Positions 1,221 to 37,987 of a stretch of DNA of 39,440 nucleotides are shown here, in pieces. The notes under the pieces are model-generated. The model ran no database searches. It was not told where the DNA came from and was given only the letters and a program-made list of their open reading frames with translations. Numbering within the stretch: position 1 is the first letter of the stretch; every line of letters starts with the position of its first letter. The position numbers were made by a program, and so were the translations under genes. Source of the stretch: Lactococcus cremoris subsp. cremoris NBRC 100676 (lineage in GTDB: Bacteria; Bacillota; Bacilli; Lactobacillales; Streptococcaceae); assembly GCF_001591705.1 (NCBI RefSeq), contig NZ_BCVK01000015.1:1-39440 (forward strand). The letters run 5' to 3'.

Positions 1221-1409
1221 TCAATTAACTCTAGGTTTGTTATAATCAAAGTATCTTCTTAAAAATACGTAATAAAAATAACTCAAAGTGTAAAAAATGA
1301 TAAATATTATGAGTGGAATTATAGAAAGAGAAAAAATGCTAACAAAAAAATTTAAAGAGACATTAGAATATGAAGGGTCAGTTTCCTTAACTTCATGAGG
1401 GTCTGACAA
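1221..1409 (-). CDS. Doubtful small membrane ORF (62 aa)
   Basis: A 62-codon reading frame from a TTG codon without a visible ribosome site. Residues 20-50 are strongly hydrophobic (FFVSIFSLSIIPLIIFIIFY) and the tail is basic, as in a single-span membrane peptide. It matches no family I recognise. Its 5' end abuts the breakpoint of the truncated FMN-binding gene, so it may be a fragment brought in by the rearrangement that removed that gene's 5' end, or simply AT-rich non-coding DNA. I favour non-coding or remnant. Confidence 0.2.
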   Translation of the reverse strand: MSDPHEVKETDPSYSNVSLNFFVSIFSLSIIPLIIFIIFYTLSYFYYVFLRRYFDYNKPRVN

Positions 1410-1713
1410 TCATCCACATGTTACGGGAACATGGATTTCTTATTTACATCTTACCAATGATGAACGGATATTGGCACCAGCGGCAGGGATGCATTATTTA
1501 GAAGAAGACATTAAAGTAAATGATACAATTTATCTTATGCTTGGGGTTAGAGAAGTCGAAGGTAAAAATGGCTATCAAGGGATTGGCTTTAGGGTGAGTG
1601 CTAAAGCAAAACTTATTTCAAGTGGTCCAGACTATGCGATGATGAAAGAGAAATATCCATTTTTAAGAGCAGTTCTTGAACTTACTCCGTTGGAAGTAGA
1701 GCAACTATTATAA
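1399..1713 (+). pseudogene. Pyridoxamine 5'-phosphate oxidase-like FMN-binding protein, 5'-truncated
   Basis: The frame is open from just after a TGA at 1396 and encodes about 104 residues ending at 1713. It resembles the split-barrel flavin-binding family (pyridoxamine-phosphate-oxidase-like, usually about 125-130 residues): HVTGTWISYLHL, ILAPAAGMHYLEED, VREVEGKNGYQGIGF and the SGPDYAMMKEKYPFLRAVLE segment are characteristic. The N-terminal strand that normally precedes the PHxxxTW segment, roughly 25-30 residues, and a start codon with ribosome site are missing; upstream sequence is unrelated. A TTG at 1471 would give an 80-residue product lacking half the barrel. I call it a remnant left by a deletion or rearrangement near 1400. 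Confidence 0.7.
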
Positions 1714-28438: not shown

Positions 28439-28511
28439 GCCGTTGTAGCTCAGTCGGTAGAGCAGCACCATGGTAAGGTGAAGGTCGACAGTTCGATTCT
28501 GTTCAATGGCA
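28439..28511 (+). tRNA. tRNA-Thr (anticodon GGU)
   Basis: A 73-base cloverleaf: acceptor GCCGTTG/CAATGGC with one G-T pair, D arm GCTC/GAGC, anticodon loop ATGGTAA with GGT at 34-36 (28472-28474), T arm GACAG/CTGTT around TTCGATT, discriminator A. CCA is not encoded. The first anticodon-stem pair is a G27-A43 mismatch. It reads ACC and ACU. A large terminator follows. Confidence 0.95.
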
Positions 28512-28514
28512 TAT

Positions 28515-28580
28515 AAACTTAGACAAATAAAAAAACTCATTTTGGATTAGATGAGTTTTTTTATTTGTCTAAGTTTTTTT
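28515..28580 (+). terminator. Very long perfect hairpin terminator after tRNA-Thr
   Basis: A 26-bp perfect inverted repeat (28515-28540 and 28551-28576) with a 10-base loop (TTTGGATTAG), then further T. The inner half alone, AAAAAACTCAT / ATGAGTTTTTT, is already a complete terminator, so it is nested. Confidence 0.93.
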
Positions 28581-28966
28581 GTAATCAAAAAAGGGCGGTC
28601 AACAAGATTGCCTTTTTCATTTATAAAAAATTTGAGAAATGTTAGGGAATTCACTAAAGAAAATGAACGGAATAGTGTAATGTGTTGTATCCTTGTGATT
28701 ACAATAAAGAAATAAAAGTATAGATAAAGAAAAAATAACATGATTTGTTGACAAAAAATATAATAATGCGTAATATAGATGTATTAGAAAAGTTTGACTA
28801 TTTAATATATGTATCTAAAAAATTTGTAACATCCTCAACTGTAAAATAATAGAAATGCTCAATCTTTTATGAAATAGTATGGAGTGATTGAAAGCTTTAG
28901 TGGTAACCTTTTACCAAGACAAAATGAGAGCAGCAAAATTTAAAAAATTAGAAATTAATATATGTT
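28581..28966. other. 386-base gap upstream of the glycan operon
   Basis: No coding frame is credible on either strand. It holds a weak AAAAAGG/CCTTTTT hairpin (about 28587-28617), a strong promoter (28748-28776) and a leader of about 185 bases with a GGTAA/TTACC mini-hairpin (28912-28925). Base composition is strongly AT-rich. Confidence 0.6.
28748..28776 (+). promoter_or_regulatory. Promoter of the glycan operon
   Basis: TTGACA (28748-28753), 17-bp spacer, TAATAT (28771-28776). It is the only clear promoter before nine closely spaced or overlapping genes. Confidence 0.8.
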
Positions 28967-30157
28967 ATGAATGAATATACATCAAGAGAGTTTGAATTCA
29001 AAAGCATCGTAGACTTGAAAAAGGTTGAAAACTTCATACTCAAGTCACCGCTTTTTGATATTTTGCAGACACCATCATGGAGAAATGTTAAAGATGAATG
29101 GAAGTCAGAATTTTTAGGATTTACGGAAAAAGGGGAGACAGAACTTTTAGCTTCTTGTTTAGTACTGACGCGTTCTTTACCTCTGGGTTTTAAAATGTGC
29201 TATATTCCACGAGGCATTATCATGGATTATTCCGATGATGAGCTTTTAAGCTTTGTTGTTTTGAAGTTGAAAGAATATGGTAAGAAAGAAAAGGCGCTTT
29301 TTATTAAATTTGACCCGCTTATTGAAGAGAATTCGGAGGGAAAGCGACTTATTGAAAAGTTAACTCTATTAGGAGTGGCTTATGGAGGAAGAACAAAAGA
29401 AATTCATGAAACAATTCAATTTCGTTTTGATGCAACAATCTATAAAGACGATTATAGCTATGAGAAACTATCAAAAAAGTTTAATAGTCGATTAAATAAA
29501 GCCAAAAAAGCCTTTCCTGAAATTAAGATTGGTCAAGAAGAATATAGCGAGGATTTTGCTCGCTTAATGACATTAACAGAGACAAGAAAAGTTATAAATT
29601 TAAGAGATAAAGCATATTTTGAAAAAATTCTAGCTGCTTTTCCCAAAAATTCTGCTATTGTTATTGTTTATACAAATGTTAAAGAACTTTTGGATGAAGT
29701 AAAGACCGAAACTTTGAAATTATCAAAAAGAATCAAAGATATAAGTAATGAAAAGAAAAAAGTTCTTTTAGAACATCAACTTCTTGAAAAAAAGGCTGAG
29801 GTGAATGACTTAGAACAAATCATAAAAACTTCGGGAGAAATTGTCCCAAGTGCAGGAAATTTAATAATATATTATGGTGAAAAGTCATACAACTTGTATG
29901 TAGGGATGGATGATGCTTTCAAAAAATATTATGTTTCTTATCTTTCTTGGGATGAAAGTATAAAGTATAGCTTTCTAAAAGGAGCTTTGATGCATGATAT
30001 GGGGGGAGTAGAGGCAGATTCTGGAGGTTTACGCTCTTTTAAAAAAATGTTTAATCCTTCCTTTAAGGAATATGTTGGAGAATTTGATATTCCTACAAAT
30101 AGACTTCTTTATCCTCTAATCAAACGACTCTATAAAATGCGAAAGGATAAAAAGTAG
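28967..30157 (+). CDS. FemABX-type aminoacyltransferase (peptidoglycan bridge family)
   Basis: A 396-residue cytoplasmic protein of the FemABX/MurMN group, which use aminoacyl-tRNA to add amino acids to lipid II or related acceptors. Seen: ILQTPSWRNVKDEW at the N-terminus, the YIPRGIIMDYSD strand, a tandem GNAT fold, and an inserted coiled-coil arm (about residues 245-285, rich in K, E and L) like the tRNA-binding-like arm of FemA. The C-terminal SYLSWDESIKYSFLKGALMHDMGGVEADSGGL region matches the family. No good ribosome site precedes the ATG. Position at the head of a glycan operon suggests it may decorate the glycan or anchor; that is inference. Confidence 0.8.
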   Translation: MNEYTSREFEFKSIVDLKKVENFILKSPLFDILQTPSWRNVKDEWKSEFLGFTEKGETELLASCLVLTRSLPLGFKMCYIPRGIIMDYSDDELLSFVVLKLKEYGKKEKALFIKFDPLIEENSEGKRLIEKLTLLGVAYGGRTKEIHETIQFRFDATIYKDDYSYEKLSKKFNSRLNKAKKAFPEIKIGQEEYSEDFARLMTLTETRKVINLRDKAYFEKILAAFPKNSAIVIVYTNVKELLDEVKTETLKLSKRIKDISNEKKKVLLEHQLLEKKAEVNDLEQIIKTSGEIVPSAGNLIIYYGEKSYNLYVGMDDAFKKYYVSYLSWDESIKYSFLKGALMHDMGGVEADSGGLRSFKKMFNPSFKEYVGEFDIPTNRLLYPLIKRLYKMRKDKK

Positions 30158-30163
30158 AGAATT

Positions 30164-31144
30164 ATGCCTAAAATAAGCATTATTGTTCCAGTTTATAATA
30201 GCGCCCTCTTTTTAGAAAGATGTTTAGATTCGATTATTAATCAGACTTTTCAGGATTTCGAATTAATTCTAATAGAAGATGGCTCTGATGATAAATCTCC
30301 TCAAATCTGTAAACACTACCAACAGAAAGATCGTCGTATCCAACTATTTTATGAGCAACATAGTGGACAGAGTATAGCCAGAAATCTGGGTCTAACTAAA
30401 TCTCAGGGAAAATATATTTATTTTATAGATAGTGATGATTATGTTACTTCTGATTATTTGGAACGGCTTTATGAAGTGATAGCGCAAGAAAAAGTTGACC
30501 TAGTAAGTTGTCAGATGAGAGGGGAGAGCTACTTAAAAAGTTTGACACCAAAAGAGAGGGGAAAGCTCACCTATTTCCAAACAAATGATGGTTTAATGGC
30601 TGCCTATCTTCAAGAAAGTCCGTTTAGTTTTGGACCGGTTACAAAACTTTATCATCGAGCATTGCTAGAAGGGATATATTTTTCTGAGCATAAAATATAT
30701 GAGGATTACTATTTCAATTACCAGTATTTTTCAAAGATAAGCTCGGCAGTTGCAATTGATTTTGTAGGTTATTTTTACATTCAAAATCAAGAGAGTACTG
30801 TAAGAAAATCCTTTGATTTAAGACAACTTGACAATATTACCGAACAACATAAAGTAATCAAAGAAGTTAAAGAAAAATATCCAGAATACTTACCCATTGC
30901 TGCTTATAATTTAGCTTGGGGTTACTATTGGATTATCATAAAATGTCTGGCTTTGCTTAAAGAGAATAAAGCAAAATCTAAAGAGTATTTAAAGCTTATC
31001 AGAAACTATCTCACTGAAGATCAAGAAATTTTGCAAAGAGCTCTTGCTCTTAAAACTAAAAGAGAAAAGTGGACGATTAAAATGGTTAAATCTTGTCCGA
31101 ATATTATCTGGTGGGCTTATAATATAAGATTCTATTTCAAATGA
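30164..31144 (+). CDS. GT2-family glycosyltransferase
   Basis: A 326-residue inverting transferase of the GT-A fold, acting at the cytoplasmic side of the membrane. KISIIVPVYNSALFLERCLDS, EDGSDDKS and the metal-binding FIDSDDYV are the family landmarks (about residues 3-95). The C-terminal EDYYFNYQYFSKISSAVAI and YFYIQNQES segments closely parallel those of the last GT2 in the operon, marking the two as paralogs. Donor sugar and linkage cannot be read. Intact, 6 bases after the FemABX gene. Confidence 0.92.
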   Translation: MPKISIIVPVYNSALFLERCLDSIINQTFQDFELILIEDGSDDKSPQICKHYQQKDRRIQLFYEQHSGQSIARNLGLTKSQGKYIYFIDSDDYVTSDYLERLYEVIAQEKVDLVSCQMRGESYLKSLTPKERGKLTYFQTNDGLMAAYLQESPFSFGPVTKLYHRALLEGIYFSEHKIYEDYYFNYQYFSKISSAVAIDFVGYFYIQNQESTVRKSFDLRQLDNITEQHKVIKEVKEKYPEYLPIAAYNLAWGYYWIIIKCLALLKENKAKSKEYLKLIRNYLTEDQEILQRALALKTKREKWTIKMVKSCPNIIWWAYNIRFYFK

Positions 31145-31162
31145 AGGGCACCTAGAATAATA

Positions 31163-32122
31163 ATGAAAAATATAAAAGTTTCGGTCATTGTGCCGATATA
31201 TAATTCAGAAAAACATATTCGTACTTGTCTAGAGTCTTTAATCAAGCAAACTTTAAAACCCATTGAAATTATTCTGGTTAATGATGGTTCGACTGATCGT
31301 AGTATTGACCATATCTTTGATTTGATTGAAAAATATAATTTTATTCGACTTATTGAGATTGAAAATAGTGGGGCAGCTGAAGCTAGAAATAAAGGACTTG
31401 CTCTTGCGCGTGGTAATTATATTAGTTTTGTAGACAGTGATGATTTTGTGCATTCTACTTTTTTAGAAAAACTTTATCAAGAAGCTGAAAATAAAAAACT
31501 TGATATCATTTGTGGAAGTTTCGAAGCAACTTACAAAAATAAAGTTTCCAAGAAAATGGAAAGAAATAACGAACTTTTGAGGGCTGGAGTCCAAGAAGGA
31601 ATAGTACTTTTTAAGAAACAAATTCAACTAAGAAATTATATTCCAATGATTTGGGCCTATATGTATCGGCGAGAATTCTTAACAAAAAATAGTCTTTGGC
31701 TTTCCCCAAAAACGATTCATGAAGATGAGAAATTCACCCCTCGGGTTTGGAACCTTGCCAAACGAGCAAAAATTATCGAGACTTTCGAGTACATTTATCA
31801 AAGAGAGCATGAGGATTCTATTATTGAGAGTAGAGATGAAAGCTCCGTCCTAGACTTGGAAAATATATTAATTTCTTAGTTGAAATATGAAGAAAATTTA
31901 TCAGGAAAAAGCAAAGAATCTTTTGATTATGCTCTGTTATACGTACTAGATCATTATGTTTACTATGGCCGGATGACAAAAACTCTTAATAAATTGCTGA
32001 TAAAAGGCATTTATTCTAGATTAAGGCGAGCAAAAATACTAACCTTCAAACAAAAGATAAAATATTTTCTAATAATAAAAAGCACTTGGCTTTATTTTTT
32101 AGTTCAAAATTATCAAGAATGA
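31163..32122 (+). pseudogene. GT2-family glycosyltransferase, interrupted by an in-frame amber stop
   Basis: A reading frame of 320 codons (319 residue positions) is broken only by TAG at 31877-31879 (codon 239). Before it: KVSVIVPIYNSEKHIRTCLES, NDGSTDRS and SFVDSDDFV, a complete GT2 catalytic domain. After it, the same frame continues with KYEENLSGKSKESFDYALLY and a basic hydrophobic tail, to a TGA at 32120. The rejoined length matches its neighbours (326 and 337 residues). TAG could arise from TTG by one change. The 238-residue truncated product would keep the catalytic motifs, so some activity cannot be excluded. Confidence 0.85.
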
Positions 32123-32130
32123 GAAGTGAA

Positions 32131-33120
32131 ATGAAAAAAATAATAGTTGATATGGATGGTCGTTTAGGCAATCAAATGTTTCAATACGCTTATGCCTTGA
32201 AACTAAAAAAAGAAATTCCAAAGAGTGAAATTATTATTAATTTCTATAGAATTTCGCTTTATGGAGATTTAGCACCAAATGAGCAAGGGTGGATGAATAA
32301 TCTTCAATACTTTCATGCAGATTATCAACTGGATCAGCAAAAATTATCAAATTTTTTAATTCAGTATTTATCAAAAAGACAGTATTTCTGGCTAAGAGTA
32401 ACAAATCGCCTCTTACATCATTTATCATCCTTCAAAAGGCACTCATACTTTCCTTTTGATAAATTGCCTAACTTTCTGAAATATTATAGTCGCTTTCTGT
32501 ATCGAAAGGGTTTGTTAATTTATCCTAGTAAGATAAAAGACTTAAACTATGAGCCTCAAAATAAAACAATCTTACTTCATTCATATTTTGAAGATGCTGG
32601 TTTTTTTGAAGGAATGCAGACTGAGCTACAAGCAACCTTTTCTCCAAGAGAGGGATTACTTGAGCAAAATAAAGAGTTTTATAGAAAAATTCAAGAAAGC
32701 CAGTCGATTTGTATTACAATCCGCCGAGGAGATTATCTCTCAACTGAAAATCGTCAGTCCTTTTTTCAATGTGATGAATCTTACTTCATCAAAGGAATTG
32801 AAATACTTAAGTCAAAAATCGTCAATCCAGTTTTTTTCTTTTTTAGTGATGACTTAGAGTACGCAAAACAGTTTGCAGAGGATGTGATGACAGAAGAGGA
32901 TAATTTTATGGTCGAAAAAGAGGGAAACCCTGTTTGGGAGAAATTAAGATTAATGAGCGCCTGTAAGCATTATATCATTGCAAATTCCACTTTTTCATGG
33001 TGGTGCCAATTTCTATCAGCTAATCCACAAAAAATCGTTGTAGGCCCCAAAAATTGGTACCCTAAAGATTCTATTAATAAAAATAATGCCCTAGTACAAA
33101 GTGATTGGATACAATTATGA
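32131..33120 (+). CDS. GT11-family (alpha-1,2-fucosyltransferase-like) glycosyltransferase
   Basis: 330 residues. The GDP-sugar-binding GT-B protein family GT11 is indicated by DMDGRLGNQMFQYAYALKL at the N-terminus, the ICITIRRGDYLS motif (family RRGDY), FFSDDLEYAKQF and the NSTFSWWCQFLSANPQKIVVGPKNWYP end. Known members transfer fucose from GDP-fucose in alpha-1,2 linkage; a GDP-heptose donor is conceivable here, given the neighbours, but is speculation. The frame is open to 32086 inside the preceding gene; the ATG at 32131 fits the family start and a GAGAAG site. It overlaps the flippase gene by ATGA. Confidence 0.88.
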   Translation: MKKIIVDMDGRLGNQMFQYAYALKLKKEIPKSEIIINFYRISLYGDLAPNEQGWMNNLQYFHADYQLDQQKLSNFLIQYLSKRQYFWLRVTNRLLHHLSSFKRHSYFPFDKLPNFLKYYSRFLYRKGLLIYPSKIKDLNYEPQNKTILLHSYFEDAGFFEGMQTELQATFSPREGLLEQNKEFYRKIQESQSICITIRRGDYLSTENRQSFFQCDESYFIKGIEILKSKIVNPVFFFFSDDLEYAKQFAEDVMTEEDNFMVEKEGNPVWEKLRLMSACKHYIIANSTFSWWCQFLSANPQKIVVGPKNWYPKDSINKNNALVQSDWIQL

Positions 33121-34641
33121 GAATTCAAAATTCCTTACGTAATATGATAACAGCAGTGATGCAGATTGTTGTTACAATCATTCTAAGATTTATAGCTCAA
33201 TCCTATTTCATACATATTCTAGGTTTGAAATATCAAGGACTTAATGGACTTTTTTCAAGTATTATTGGCATGCTTGGGATTGCTGAGCTTGGGCTGGGGA
33301 CAGCTATCTTATTTAACATGTATGAGTATATTGCTAAACGAGATATTGAAACGATAAAATCATTATTAAAATTTTATCAGCGCTGTTATCAAGCTATTGC
33401 CGGATTTGTCATTGTTTTTGGTCTTGCTCTTATGCCCTTTTTACATGTTTTTGTTAATATGTCTTCGATTAATGAAAATGTATATGTAATTTATTTACTT
33501 TTTTTAGCTGATTCAGCTTTTTCCTATTTATTAATTTATAAACAATCAATACTGATTGCTCACCAAAAAAAACATCTGATTAATCTGGCAGATTTAGCGT
33601 ATACGATTATCTATAATTTAGGGCAGATTGCTTTGTTAATTCTAACCCATAATTATATTCTTATTTTGTTGCTTGTTCTTTTTCTTCGTTTAGCTGAAAA
33701 TATTATGATTAGTCGAGTTGCGGACCGACGTTATCCATATATTAAAGATAAAAAGGTTCAATTGTTGGATAAAAAAATTGCTCGAAGATTAATAAAACAA
33801 ATGAAAGGACAAGCTTTTCACGTCATCGGAGGATTTGTTGTTTTTGGAACAGATAATATGATAATCAGCTCCTTCTTAGGACTTACTGTTATGGGGCTCT
33901 ATAGTAACTATTTACTGATAACGAATACGCTCAACAGTTTTTTTACTTCAAGTTGTAGGAAGTGTAACTCCGAGTGTGGGGGATTTATTAACGGAAAAAA
34001 ATGGTAAAGAAAATTTTAAAGTTCATCAGCATTTAACCTTTATCTGTTTTTGGCTCTACTCATTTTCAGCAATTGGGATTTATATTGTAACGCAGCCTTT
34101 TATTGAGTTATGGTTGGGGAAAAATTATCTCTTATCTGGTGGTGTTCTGTTGGTTGTTGCACTTAACTTTTATGTTCAGGGAATGAGAAGTCCAATGACA
34201 GTCTTTCAGCAAGCGGCTGGTATTTTTTATGAGAATAGGTTCGTCCCAGTAGCTGAAGCGATAACAAATTTGATAGCTTCGATTGTATTGATTAAATACT
34301 TAGGGCTTGCGGGTGTTTTACTGGGAACAATTATATGTACGATGATACTTTATGGTTACAGTTTTCCAAAATATACTTTTGTTCCGATATTCAAAAAGAA
34401 AGTTTCTGTTTATGTAATTGAGCAACTCAGCTATCTTTTTATCTTTGTTTTACTCTTTATATCCACAGTAGTCGTATCGCATTTTTTAGACGTAAGCAAT
34501 GTCTGGGGAAATTTTATACTTAAAATTGTAATTTGTCTCATTATACCCAATGCTTTACTTATCTTACTTTTTAGAAAAAGTAGAGAATTTAGATATTTTA
34601 GAAGCTTGGTCAATGGTTTATTTTCAAAAAATAATAGTTAG
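33117..34641 (+). pseudogene. Wzx-like polysaccharide flippase, frameshifted
   Basis: Two adjacent frames together encode a polytopic protein of about 507 residues of the MOP superfamily, which flips lipid-linked oligosaccharides to the outer face. The first (33117 to about 33944) gives RIQNSLRNMITAVMQIVVTIILR through GLYSNYLLITNTLNSF; the second resumes as QVVGSVTPSVGDLLTEKNGKENF and runs to 34641. One extra base between 33933 and 33952, most simply in the T7 run at 33938-33944, accounts for the break; dropping one T gives NSFLLQVVGSVT. The first frame ends at 34007 after 18 out-of-frame residues. About 12-14 helices would exist in the intact protein. Confidence 0.85.
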
Positions 34642-34670
34642 AAATATAAATATTAAGGAGAAATATTTAA

Positions 34671-35644
34671 ATGATTATTGTACGAGCCCCCTTTAGGGTA
34701 TCTTTCGCAGGAGGCGGAAGTGATATTGCAAGTTTTTACGAGAAAATGGAGGTTGTGTCCTTTCAACAACAATAGATAAATATATTTATTTATCCGTTCA
34801 TCCATCTTTCAATGCTAATGAAACAATATTACGTTATAAAAAAAGTGAAGTGGTTCAAGAAATTTCAGAAATCGGTCATGATATTGTAAGAGCTTGTCTC
34901 CAAAAGAAAAATATAAAAAATATCGAAATTCATTCAGATGCAGACATTCCAGCAGGAACAGGGCTGGGTTCTTCAAGTACATTTACAACGGCTTTATTAA
35001 CGGCTTTGAATAGCTACAAGGGACAGAAAACAGATAAGGAACAACTTGCTCAAGAAGCTTGTGAAATTGAAATAGAGGATTTAGGAAACCCAATTGGGAA
35101 ACAGGACCAATACGCTGCAAGCTACGGTAATCTTAACTTTTATCGATTTCAAAAAGATGGTTCTGTTAGTGTTGAAGCAGTTAAGATGAGTTCAGCTGAT
35201 AAAGAGAAAATGGCAAATAACTTATTGATGTTCTATATTGGAGGGGTTCATGATGCTCCACAGATTTTGTCAGAGCAGTCTAAAAATATTCAGGAGGTAA
35301 GTAAAGAAAAGAACTTGATTAAAATGTGCGAGCTTGCTGAAAAATTAAAAGTTGAGCTTGAAAGTGGGAATATTGATGCTCTTGGAGAAATTTTACATGA
35401 AAATTGGCTTTTAAAAAGAACTTTGGCAAGAGGAATTTCCAATCCTAGAATTGATGAATATTATCAATTGGCTTTGGAAGCAGGTGCGCTAGGTGGTAAA
35501 TTGCTGGGCGCAGGTGGAGCAGGATTTTTATTATTTTATGCCACTAAAGACTCGAAAGAAAAAATTAGGAAAGCTTTGAAGCTCCCTGAAATTAAATTTT
35601 CTTACGATACCGAAGGAACTAAAGTCATTTATGAGGAAAAATAA
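34671..35644 (+). pseudogene. hddA: D-glycero-D-manno-heptose 7-phosphate kinase (HddA-like), frameshifted
   Basis: GHMP-family kinase that phosphorylates heptose 7-phosphate at C1. The ATG at 34671, with AAGGAG upstream, starts IIVRAPFRVSFAGGGSDIASFYEK; the frame then reaches TAG at 34773 after 34 codons. Adding one base to the A run at 34743-34746 restores NGGCVLSTTIDKYIYLSVHP, which continues in the downstream frame to 35644 (324 residues in total). The ATP loop IPAGTGLGSSSTFTTALL and the C-terminal LGGKLLGAGGAGFLLFY motif are intact. So a single-base deletion disables the gene. An internal start at 34850 would lack the substrate-binding N-terminus. Confidence 0.85.
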
Positions 35645-35705
35645 AAGCCATATATTTCTACTAATAAAATGATTATCAGCTATGCATAGCAAAAGGAGAA
35701 ATTAA

Positions 35706-36281
35706 ATGAATTATACAGAAGAAATCACAAACTATTACGCACGTCTTGAAAAAACAATAGAATCACTTGATAAAGAAGCACTAAATCAAGTCATGAATCT
35801 TTTGCAAGAAGCTTATGAAAATGAAGTAAGAATTTATGTTTGTGGAAATGGTGGCTCTGGAAGCACTGCTTCACATATCATGAATGATTTTAACAAAGGA
35901 CTTTCTTATGACCAAGACAAAAAATGGCACCTTGTTTGTTTGAATGATAACGTGGCAACTTTGATGGCTATTTCCAATGATGATAGTTATGACAAGGTAT
36001 TTTCAAAACAACTTGAGGGAAATATCACAAAAGACGACATTCTTCTTGCGATTTCTGGAAGCGGAAATTCAAAAAATATAATTGAGGCGGTTAAAGAGGC
36101 TCAAAAAGTGGGAGCTAAAGTCGTTGGAATGACAGGTTATGATGGAGGAAAACTTTATCAAATGAGCGATTTTAATATGCATGTACCTATCAATGATATG
36201 CAAATCGCTGAGGATATTCACCTTACTTTTAATCATATGATGATGTCTGTCTTTTATAAAAAGGTTGCGAATGAAAAATGA
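35706..36281 (+). CDS. gmhA: Phosphoheptose isomerase (GmhA)
   Basis: A 191-residue cytoplasmic SIS-domain enzyme converting sedoheptulose 7-phosphate to D-glycero-D-manno-heptose 7-phosphate, the first step to activated heptose. IYVCGNGGSGSTASHIMNDF, LAISGSGNSKNI and the terminal AEDIHLTFNHMMM helix, with zinc/active-site histidines and glutamate, mark the family. Intact, AAGGAG ribosome site, and ATGA overlap with gmhB. The only undamaged heptose-pathway gene here. Confidence 0.93.
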   Translation: MNYTEEITNYYARLEKTIESLDKEALNQVMNLLQEAYENEVRIYVCGNGGSGSTASHIMNDFNKGLSYDQDKKWHLVCLNDNVATLMAISNDDSYDKVFSKQLEGNITKDDILLAISGSGNSKNIIEAVKEAQKVGAKVVGMTGYDGGKLYQMSDFNMHVPINDMQIAEDIHLTFNHMMMSVFYKKVANEK

Positions 36282-36823
36282 GAAAAGCAATTTTCTTTGA
36301 TCGTGATGGGACGCTCAATGAATTTAAACTAGGAGATTATATTACACAAGTTGAAGAGCTTGTATTACTTAATGGAGCAGCAAGGGCAGTAAAAAAGGCC
36401 AATGCAGCGGGCTATTTGTGTATTATTGTTACCAATCAAGGAGGAGTTATTCATAACAGATGAGTTGCTTATTCTGAGGTTGAAAGAATAAATGAACGAT
36501 TGGTTCAACTTTTGAATGAGGAGGGGGGCAAAATTGATGGAATTTATGTTTGTCCGCATTATCCTGGCTTTGAGTCTTGTACATGCCGTAAACCCAAAAC
36601 TGGCTTGATTAATATGGCTGTGAGTGATTTCAGTATTAGTCTGAATAATTCATATATAATCGGGGATTCTGATTCTGATGTCTTGGCTGGAAAAAATTCA
36701 GGTCTTAAAACAGTAGGGATAGGTGAGCGAATAAAAACCGAGGCAGATTTTTGTACTTATAATGTCGAAGAAGCGGTGAATTATATTTTGAAAAGAGAGA
36801 GTAAATGCCAAAAGTCAGTGTAA
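36278..36823 (+). pseudogene. gmhB: Heptose bisphosphate phosphatase (GmhB-like), interrupted by an opal stop
   Basis: HAD-family phosphatase that removes the C7 phosphate of heptose 1,7-bisphosphate. The frame reads FFDRDGTLNE (nucleophile D9, acid D11), TNQGGV, then TGA at 36461-36463 (codon 62), and continues without shift as VAYSEVERINERLVQLLNEE, the zinc-loop CPHYPGFESCTCRKPKTG and GDSDSDVLAGKNSG, to 36823 (181 positions). TGA lies where the family has a variable substrate-loop residue; one change from TGG or CGA would create it. The last 19 bases overlap the next GT2 gene. Confidence 0.87.
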
Positions 36824-37818
36824 TTGTACCTGTATACAATGTTGAAAAACTTTTAGAGAGATGTTTGAATTCTGTTCTCAACCAAAGCTTCCAGGATTTT
36901 GAGTTGCTATTGATTGATGATGGTTCAAAAGATAGTTCTGGTCAAATCTGTGATAATTATGCAAAAAAAGATCAGCGTGTGCGCGTTTGGCATATTCCAA
37001 ATGGAGGGCAAAGTGCAGCTAGAAACTTGGGAATTGATAATGTCTACGGAACCTATATTGTTTTTATTGACAGTGATGATTTTGTTGAATTAGATTACTT
37101 AGAGCAGCTTTATCAGCCAATGGTTGAATATGAAGCTGATGTCGTGAGTTGTCGTTATATCGCTTATTCGGAAGAACGAGATGAAGAAGTAAAGAAAATA
37201 ATTCGGGAAAATCAAGCAAAAGTCTATCATTTTAGGAATAATCAGGATGTTATGCAAGATTTTTTAGAGAAAGAATTCAAAGATGATAGAAATTTTCCTT
37301 GGGAGTCTTATGCAAATCTTTATAAAACCGAGCTTCTTGGAGAGATTCGTTTTGAAGTGGGCAGAGAATTTGAGGATAATTTCTTCAACTATCAGTACTT
37401 TAAAAAAGTCCAAAAGGCCATTGCAACAAGCTACATTGGTTATTATTATTACGCTAATCCGACCTCAAAGACAAGAATTACTTTTTACGAAAAACAATTC
37501 GATTTAATCCAACAAGAGCGTTTAATAATAGAAGACGTAAAGATTAAATACCCGGAGTTTATAGATTTAGAAGCTAATAATTTAGCACTCAAATATTGTT
37601 GGCTTTATGGTAAGATTTTTGGTGATATTCGATTTTCTAATTTTTCGGTTAGTAAAAAAAATATTCGGATCATTCAAAGTCTTTATAAAGAGGATAAAAA
37701 ATATTTTCTAAAATTAGATATTGGAAAAAAATGGGGAACATTTTTGAAATTGGCAAGTTCATTTCCTTATGCTACTGGATTATCCAATCGATTATACAGA
37801 CTACTAAAGCAGAAATAA
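36805..37818 (+). CDS. GT2-family glycosyltransferase
   Basis: 337 residues, GT-A fold: KVSVIVPVYNVEKLLERCLNS, DDGSKDSS and FIDSDDFVELDYLEQL in the first 100 residues, and a C-terminal EDNFFNYQYFKKVQKAIAT region shared with the first GT2 of the operon. Intact. It overlaps the 3' end of gmhB by 19 bases and is the last gene of the operon. Donor and acceptor are unknown. Confidence 0.92.
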   Translation: MPKVSVIVPVYNVEKLLERCLNSVLNQSFQDFELLLIDDGSKDSSGQICDNYAKKDQRVRVWHIPNGGQSAARNLGIDNVYGTYIVFIDSDDFVELDYLEQLYQPMVEYEADVVSCRYIAYSEERDEEVKKIIRENQAKVYHFRNNQDVMQDFLEKEFKDDRNFPWESYANLYKTELLGEIRFEVGREFEDNFFNYQYFKKVQKAIATSYIGYYYYANPTSKTRITFYEKQFDLIQQERLIIEDVKIKYPEFIDLEANNLALKYCWLYGKIFGDIRFSNFSVSKKNIRIIQSLYKEDKKYFLKLDIGKKWGTFLKLASSFPYATGLSNRLYRLLKQK

Positions 37819-37880
37819 ACCAAGCATTTTCCTTTATATCATGATATTTCATAGATAATAACGATAAGTCAAATAAAGTA

Positions 37881-37889
37881 TGGTAGAAT
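37881..37889 (+). promoter_or_regulatory. Extended -10 promoter of radA
   Basis: TGgTAGAAT about 100 bases before radA, with no good -35. Between this and the operon end there is no recognisable terminator, so operon readthrough into radA cannot be ruled out. Confidence 0.45.
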
Positions 37890-37987
37890 AATAAGATAAA
37901 AAATTATTTATCAGGGTATTTTAGGACGATTTATTCGCTTTTTTGTTACATCTGAATAAATTTTACGTATAAATAAGTGGAGGGAAA

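What the first reader, a model, noticed from the sequence alone, without database searches (positions are those of the whole stretch)
34671..36823. GDP-heptose pathway with three of four enzymes and no guanylyltransferase
GmhA, HddA and GmhB are all recognisable, yet HddC, which makes GDP-heptose from heptose 1-phosphate, is absent from the operon. Either it lies elsewhere, or a deletion removed it, or another nucleotidyltransferase serves. A heptosyltransferase of recognised family is also missing, so one of the GT2s or the GT11 would need to use the sugar.
Basis: partly seen in the sequence, partly recalled or inferred. Interest (0 to 1): 0.6.

Follow-up and report, generated by a model that had tools for sequence, protein, structure and literature searches.

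The report
Decaying lactococcal sugar operon without guanylyltransferase
A milk-type Lactococcus carries a broken surface-sugar operon whose kinase, isomerase and phosphatase resemble the GDP-heptose enzymes but belong to a different subfamily, and the missing guanylyltransferase is absent from the related operons and every related genome checked, so it was not recently cut out of this operon.

Summary
The gene content is real, but the pathway is not "three working enzymes minus one". The kinase gene (frameshift) and the phosphatase gene (stop codon) are disrupted, as are a neighbouring glycosyltransferase and the flippase; only the isomerase of the trio is intact. A housekeeping control in the same window (1 of 38 genes disrupted) argues against poor sequencing. 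A guanylyltransferase is absent from the whole genome (99.87% complete; only RmlA, GalU and GlmU). A same-genus relative (G006) carries the trio intact and adjacent, also without hddC; a second (G008) shows the same order until its contig ends in gmhA. The nearest relative (G001) keeps only relics of the operon at the same site. None of 18 genus genomes shows an HddC-type enzyme. Three other Bacilli with a related kinase carry hddC or a fused version. The lactococcal enzymes fall below the curated GDP-heptose cut-offs; the isomerase differs at positions aligned with E. coli GmhA E65, R69, T120 and Q172, a pattern shared by its own clade. Best reading: an acquired, non-canonical heptose-like sugar-phosphate pathway in a surface-glycan operon, now decaying. 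The activating enzyme, if any, is unidentified. Interest is modest.

The parts
28439..28511 (+). tRNA-Thr (ggt) directly upstream of the island; left border of a variable site between rplQ and radA
   Evidence: site comparison
28967..30157 (+). FemAB-family protein, intact
   Evidence: PF02388 E 8.9e-81
30164..31144 (+). GT2 glycosyltransferase a, intact
   Evidence: PF00535; homolog in G008
31163..32119 (+). GT2 glycosyltransferase b, pseudogene: in-frame TAG at 31877-31879
   Evidence: tblastn of the G006 homolog runs through the stop in one frame (stop position)
32131..33120 (+). GT11 glycosyltransferase, intact (the ORF list gives an upstream TTG start at 32086)
   Evidence: PF01531 E 9.9e-33
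33114..34641 (+). Wzx-like flippase, pseudogene: frameshift about 33940-33950, next to a T7 run
   Evidence: two tblastn pieces in two frames; no Pfam hit, named by its place in the operon and its hydrophobic sequence
34671..35644 (+). HddA-like GHMP kinase, pseudogene: frameshift about 34740-34746, next to an A4 run
   Evidence: PF00288 and PF08544
35706..36281 (+). GmhA-like SIS isomerase, intact
   Evidence: PF13580; TIGR00441 125 bits, cut-off 209
36278..36823 (+). GmhB-like HAD phosphatase, pseudogene: in-frame TGA at 36461-36463
   Evidence: NF006506 70 bits for the 3' fragment and 144 for the intact G006 homolog, cut-off 178
36805..37818 (+). GT2 glycosyltransferase c, intact
   Evidence: PF00535; 68% identical to the G006 homolog

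Best explanation
This is a decaying surface-glycan operon, probably acquired horizontally, inserted between rplQ/tRNA-Thr and radA in a Lactococcus. It encodes glycosyltransferases (three GT2, one GT11), a flippase-like protein, a FemAB protein and a GHMP kinase / SIS isomerase / HAD phosphatase trio. By homology the trio would turn a ketose phosphate (sedoheptulose 7-phosphate or a similar sugar) into an aldose 1-phosphate: isomerase, then C1 kinase, then removal of the distal phosphate (inferred). The trio belongs to a subfamily distinct from the canonical GDP-heptose enzymes. A dedicated guanylyltransferase was probably not part of this operon in lactococci: it is missing from this genome, from the intact trio in G006 and from the other lactococci examined. 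In this strain the kinase and phosphatase genes are broken, so the route is very probably not working. Shown: gene content, disruptions, absence of HddC-type genes, relics in the nearest relative, altered active-site positions. Inferred: substrate, product, donor use and the horizontal origin.
For: Disruption of 4 of 9 operon genes against intact relatives; only 1 of 38 comparisons in the housekeeping stretch of the same window is disrupted (Fisher p 0.003); elsewhere 12 of 70 genes are disrupted, and those that matched a family look dispensable (6-phospho-beta-glucosidase, BcaP-type transporter, efflux, HisJ-type phosphatase), in line with the genome decay reported for dairy lactococci (PMC5372332). 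PF00483 in the own genome gives only RmlA, GalU and GlmU; none of 18 genus genomes has an HddC-type hit. Intact hddA-gmhA-gmhB in G006 without hddC. Relics of the same operon, including the gmhA-gmhB junction, at the same site in G001. HddA relatives are rare: 3 of 18 in the genus, 1 of 395 sampled in the order. Subfamily: canonical HddA in G481 scores 508 bits on NF049969 against 152 for the lactococcal one; the tree puts the canonical pair apart with full support; GmhA positions E65, R69, T120 and Q172 are D, G, G and E in the lactococcal copies (Q172 is not covered in G008).
Against: G006 and G008 are incomplete (71% and 85%), so an unlinked hddC could be hidden there; the G008 contig ends inside gmhA. 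G000 is itself decaying and could have lost an unlinked hddC. Reads were not available, so assembly error at individual breaks is not formally excluded. Against the genome-wide sample the excess of disruptions in the operon is weak (p 0.08).
Confidence: 0.75

Rival explanations
1. A resident nucleotidyltransferase, most likely RmlA or GalU, activates the sugar 1-phosphate in lactococci with an intact operon, so no dedicated enzyme is needed.
For: Single RmlA and GalU genes are present in G000, G006 and G008; no other NTP_transferase candidate is shared by the three genomes besides GlmU.
Against: No duplicated or divergent RmlA is seen. All seven non-lactococcal genomes holding a relative of the kinase have a closer HddC/ManC/MurU-type match, E 1e-23 or better, against about 1e-11 (RmlA) in lactococci. 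GT11 enzymes are known mainly as GDP-fucose users (own knowledge), not dTDP or UDP.
Confidence: 0.25
2. The ancestral lactococcal system had an unlinked hddC elsewhere in the chromosome; it was lost in this decaying strain and is hidden in the missing parts of G006 and G008.
For: G006 and G008 are incomplete; G000 shows widespread gene decay and lacks the GlgC/GlgD-type hits that most relatives have.
Against: No HddC-type gene in any of the 18 genus genomes. In Bacilli comparators the NTP transferase gene is always inside the cluster.
Confidence: 0.2
3. The activating enzyme is of another fold, such as the cytidylyltransferase-like domain of HldE, giving an ADP- or CDP-sugar.
For: Not all nucleotidyltransferase folds could be searched genome-wide.
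Against: tblastn with the E. coli HldE C-terminal domain finds nothing in the 1.59 Mb of the own genome held here, about two thirds. IspD (PF01128) finds only GlmU in G000, and PF07959 finds nothing there.
Confidence: 0.1
4. The four disruptions are sequencing or assembly errors and the operon is intact in the living strain.
For: Two of the breaks lie next to short homopolymers (T7 in wzx, A4 in hddA).
Against: Two are in-frame stop codons, not indels; the 28 kb housekeeping stretch of the same contig has 1 disruption in 38 comparisons; the nearest relative has almost deleted the same operon.
Confidence: 0.08

Closest known systems
[quoted passage not shown] Campylobacter jejuni, Aneurinibacillus, Acholeplasma oculi)
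   Same: Same three enzyme superfamilies (GHMP kinase, SIS isomerase, HAD phosphatase) in one operon with glycan genes; the pathway steps are described in PMC10680097 and PMC4221730.
   Different: No HddC; kinase, isomerase and phosphatase fall below the curated cut-offs; several isomerase active-site positions changed; two of three genes disrupted in this strain.
hddA-gmhA-hddC-gmhB clusters of other Bacilli (G481, G561) and the fused NTP-HAD version (G734)
   Same: Cluster logic and order hddA-gmhA-(hddC)-gmhB in G481 and G561.
   Different: hddC sits between gmhA and gmhB there, or is fused to gmhB in G734; in lactococci gmhA and gmhB adjoin or overlap.
Non-canonical kinase/SIS loci of L040 (Flavobacteriales) and L043 (Spirochaetes), and the SIS isomerase on a Moellerella plasmid
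   Same: Shared D, G, G, E positions of the isomerase; L040 and L043 have the HddA-like kinase next to it.
   Different: L043 carries an NTP transferase fused to a GmhB-type phosphatase in the same cluster; the lactococci have none. No kinase was seen beside the Moellerella isomerase.

Membership tests
GDP-heptose pathway | HddA equivalog (NF049969, cut-off 600 bits) | tested here: not met
   125 bits for the window fragment, 152 for the intact G006 protein, 508 for the G481 protein. The canonical-looking G481 protein is also below the cut-off, so the relative scores matter more than the threshold.
GDP-heptose pathway | GmhA equivalog (TIGR00441, cut-off 209 bits) with the E. coli active-site positions | tested here: not met
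   125 bits; E65D, R69G, T120G, Q172E; S55, H61, D94, S119 and H180 conserved.
GDP-heptose pathway | GmhB equivalog (NF006506, cut-off 178; NF050049, cut-off 250) | tested here: not met
   144 and 112 bits for intact G006 GmhB; it passes the broader domain models TIGR01656 and TIGR01662.
GDP-heptose pathway | HddC guanylyltransferase in the operon or genome | tested here: not met
GDP-heptose pathway | Conversion of sedoheptulose 7-phosphate to GDP-heptose | not testable with these tools
   Needs enzymology.
GDP-heptose pathway | Intact genes for the three upstream steps in this strain | tested here: not met
   hddA and gmhB disrupted, gmhA intact.
ADP-heptose pathway (HldE) | HldE nucleotidyltransferase domain in the genome | tested here: inconclusive
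   No match to the E. coli HldE C-terminal domain in 1.59 of 2.34 Mb.
GDP-fucose supply for the GT11 | ManC or Fkp-type guanylyltransferase in the genome | tested here: not met
   Only RmlA, GalU and GlmU in PF00483; PF07959 absent.

The most novel reading that the evidence does not exclude
Lactococci with an intact operon make a heptose-like (or other) sugar 1-phosphate by a non-canonical kinase-isomerase-phosphatase trio and activate it without any dedicated nucleotidyltransferase, through a promiscuous housekeeping enzyme or an unrecognised one, feeding a GT11 or GT2 transferase.
Probability: 0.2. Interest if true: 0.6.

Novelty: new variant of a known kind. Interest (0 to 1): 0.3.

Why it matters
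Heptose-type sugars are hardly described in lactococci (full-text searches returned no relevant paper). An intact operon with the trio but no nucleotidyltransferase would either show a new donor-forming route or a sugar other than GDP-heptose, and it corrects the likely automatic annotation 'GDP-heptose biosynthesis'. In this strain the main point is ordinary: a surface-glycan operon in decay in a dairy-type genome, with the nearest relative a step further along.

Tried and rejected
HddC elsewhere in the genome (PF00483, PF12804, PF01128, PF07959 and HddC proteins): only housekeeping enzymes. Deletion scar at the gmhA-gmhB junction: none; the junction is the same in the window and the G001 relic and nearly the same in G006. 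hddC remnant in the 455 bp upstream of femAB or elsewhere in the operon: none. Phage or plasmid origin: no near DNA match among plasmids, no relative in viral contigs; plasmid relatives of the kinase and isomerase are below 60% identical. Literature on heptose or gmhA in Lactococcus: nothing relevant in the held library. A fused NTP domain in a lactococcal trio gene: lengths (325, about 190 and 173 aa) leave no room. The family model NF049969 could not be used for whole-genome searches, so alignment A2 was used.

Full report
What is there. The window is the whole of contig C15 of a 2.34 Mb, 122-contig genome, 99.87% complete. Size, G+C and neighbours fit a Lactococcus of the lactis/cremoris group: RpoA is 98-99% identical to five same-genus genomes and RadA 99.3% to G001; the species name itself is an inference. 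Between rplQ/tRNA-Thr and radA lies a nine-gene operon: FemAB protein, GT2, GT2, GT11, flippase-like protein, HddA-like kinase, GmhA-like isomerase, GmhB-like phosphatase, GT2.

The genes are broken. Aligning intact proteins of G006 and G008 to the window shows four disruptions: a TAG in the second GT2, a frameshift in the flippase, a frameshift in the kinase near its N terminus, and a TGA in the phosphatase. Of the trio only the isomerase is intact. Control: 38 comparisons covering the ribosomal and neighbouring genes of the same contig against G001 show one disruption, p = 0.003 against the operon. In a 70-gene sample from elsewhere in the genome 12 are disrupted, and those recognised are catabolic, transport or biosynthetic genes of a dispensable kind; two of the twelve queries hit the same locus, so the true count is slightly lower. 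The excess in the operon over that sample is weak (p = 0.08). Genome decay is described for dairy lactococci, above all cremoris (PMC5372332). The breaks are therefore probably real and not special to this operon.

HddC is absent, and probably was not in the operon. PF00483 finds three genes in the own genome, named RmlA, GalU and GlmU by curated models over their cut-offs. G006 has the same three; G008 has in addition GlgC- and GlgD-like genes and an IspD-like gene in another glycan locus (the GlgC/D naming is from length and adjacency). Over 18 genus genomes no HddC-type hit appears. G006 carries flippase, hddA, gmhA, gmhB and GT2 intact at another chromosomal place, near uvrC and folate genes, again without hddC. 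G008 shows FemAB to gmhA in the same order and is cut inside gmhA. G001, the nearest relative, retains at the rplQ-radA site a piece of the operon's upstream region, a frameshifted gmhA running into the gmhB start, and the tail of the last GT2, so its ancestor had the operon there and most of it has since been deleted. Other near relatives have other genes at this place.

The comparators do have a nucleotidyltransferase. Two Bacilli (G481, G561) have hddA-gmhA-hddC-gmhB, and a third (G734) has an NTP-HAD fusion. A spirochaete (L043) has such a fusion beside the same non-canonical isomerase, and a Rhizobium plasmid has an NTP-HAD protein beside the kinase. All seven non-lactococcal genomes reached by the kinase search contain an HddC/ManC/MurU-type match at E 1e-23 or better, against about 1e-11 (RmlA) in the lactococci.

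The enzymes are not canonical. The intact G006 kinase scores 152 bits on the HddA model where the G481 kinase scores 508, and the tree separates the G481/G561 pair from the rest with full support; the order within the rest is mostly unresolved. The isomerase keeps S55, H61, D94, S119 and H180 of E. coli GmhA but has D, G, G and E at E65, R69, T120 and Q172; L040, L043 and Moellerella share this pattern except T at R69 in Moellerella and N at H180 in L040, while G481, G561 and G734 keep the E. coli residues. From memory, E65 and H180 are the catalytic pair in GmhA. So the substrate may not be sedoheptulose 7-phosphate, and 'GDP-heptose' is a label by resemblance.

How it most likely works. In an intact operon (G006) the trio would make a sugar 1-phosphate that must be activated before a GT2 or the GT11 can use it. 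No dedicated enzyme is known; a promiscuous RmlA or GalU is the simplest candidate, and an unlinked, unseen enzyme in the incomplete G006 and G008 genomes is the main alternative. The GT11 also lacks a visible GDP-sugar source in this genome. In the window strain the question is largely moot because kinase and phosphatase genes are broken.

Limits. G006 and G008 are incomplete assemblies; reads were not available; the HldE-type fold was checked in only two thirds of the own genome; PF01467, PF01704, PF02348 and PF01075 were not searched genome-wide.

Noticed in passing
window 28439-28511 and 28512-37987: The tRNA-Thr/rplQ-radA interval is a variable site: the glycan operon here, relics in G001, genes for surface-type proteins of 1589-1750 aa after rplQ in G010, G011 and G013, other genes in G005 and G016, and little in G003 and G007.
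   Followed up: partly
L043:12639-13835: A spirochaete gene fuses an NTP transferase with a GmhB-type phosphatase next to HddA- and GmhA-like genes; G734 (L153:8124-9413) has a similar fusion.
   Followed up: no
L148:4055-6004: A Rhizobium plasmid gene next to the HddA-like kinase encodes an NTP transferase, a HAD phosphatase and a uridine-kinase-like domain in one 649 aa protein.
   Followed up: no
window 33930-33960: The flippase frameshift lies beside a T7 run; phase variation by slippage is conceivable but was not tested.
   Followed up: no
window 1336-1710: A 125-codon gene that is open in G001 has an in-frame stop here.
   Followed up: no
G000 whole genome: The GlgC- and GlgD-type PF00483 hits present in most genus members are absent here and in G003 and the incomplete G006.
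   Followed up: no
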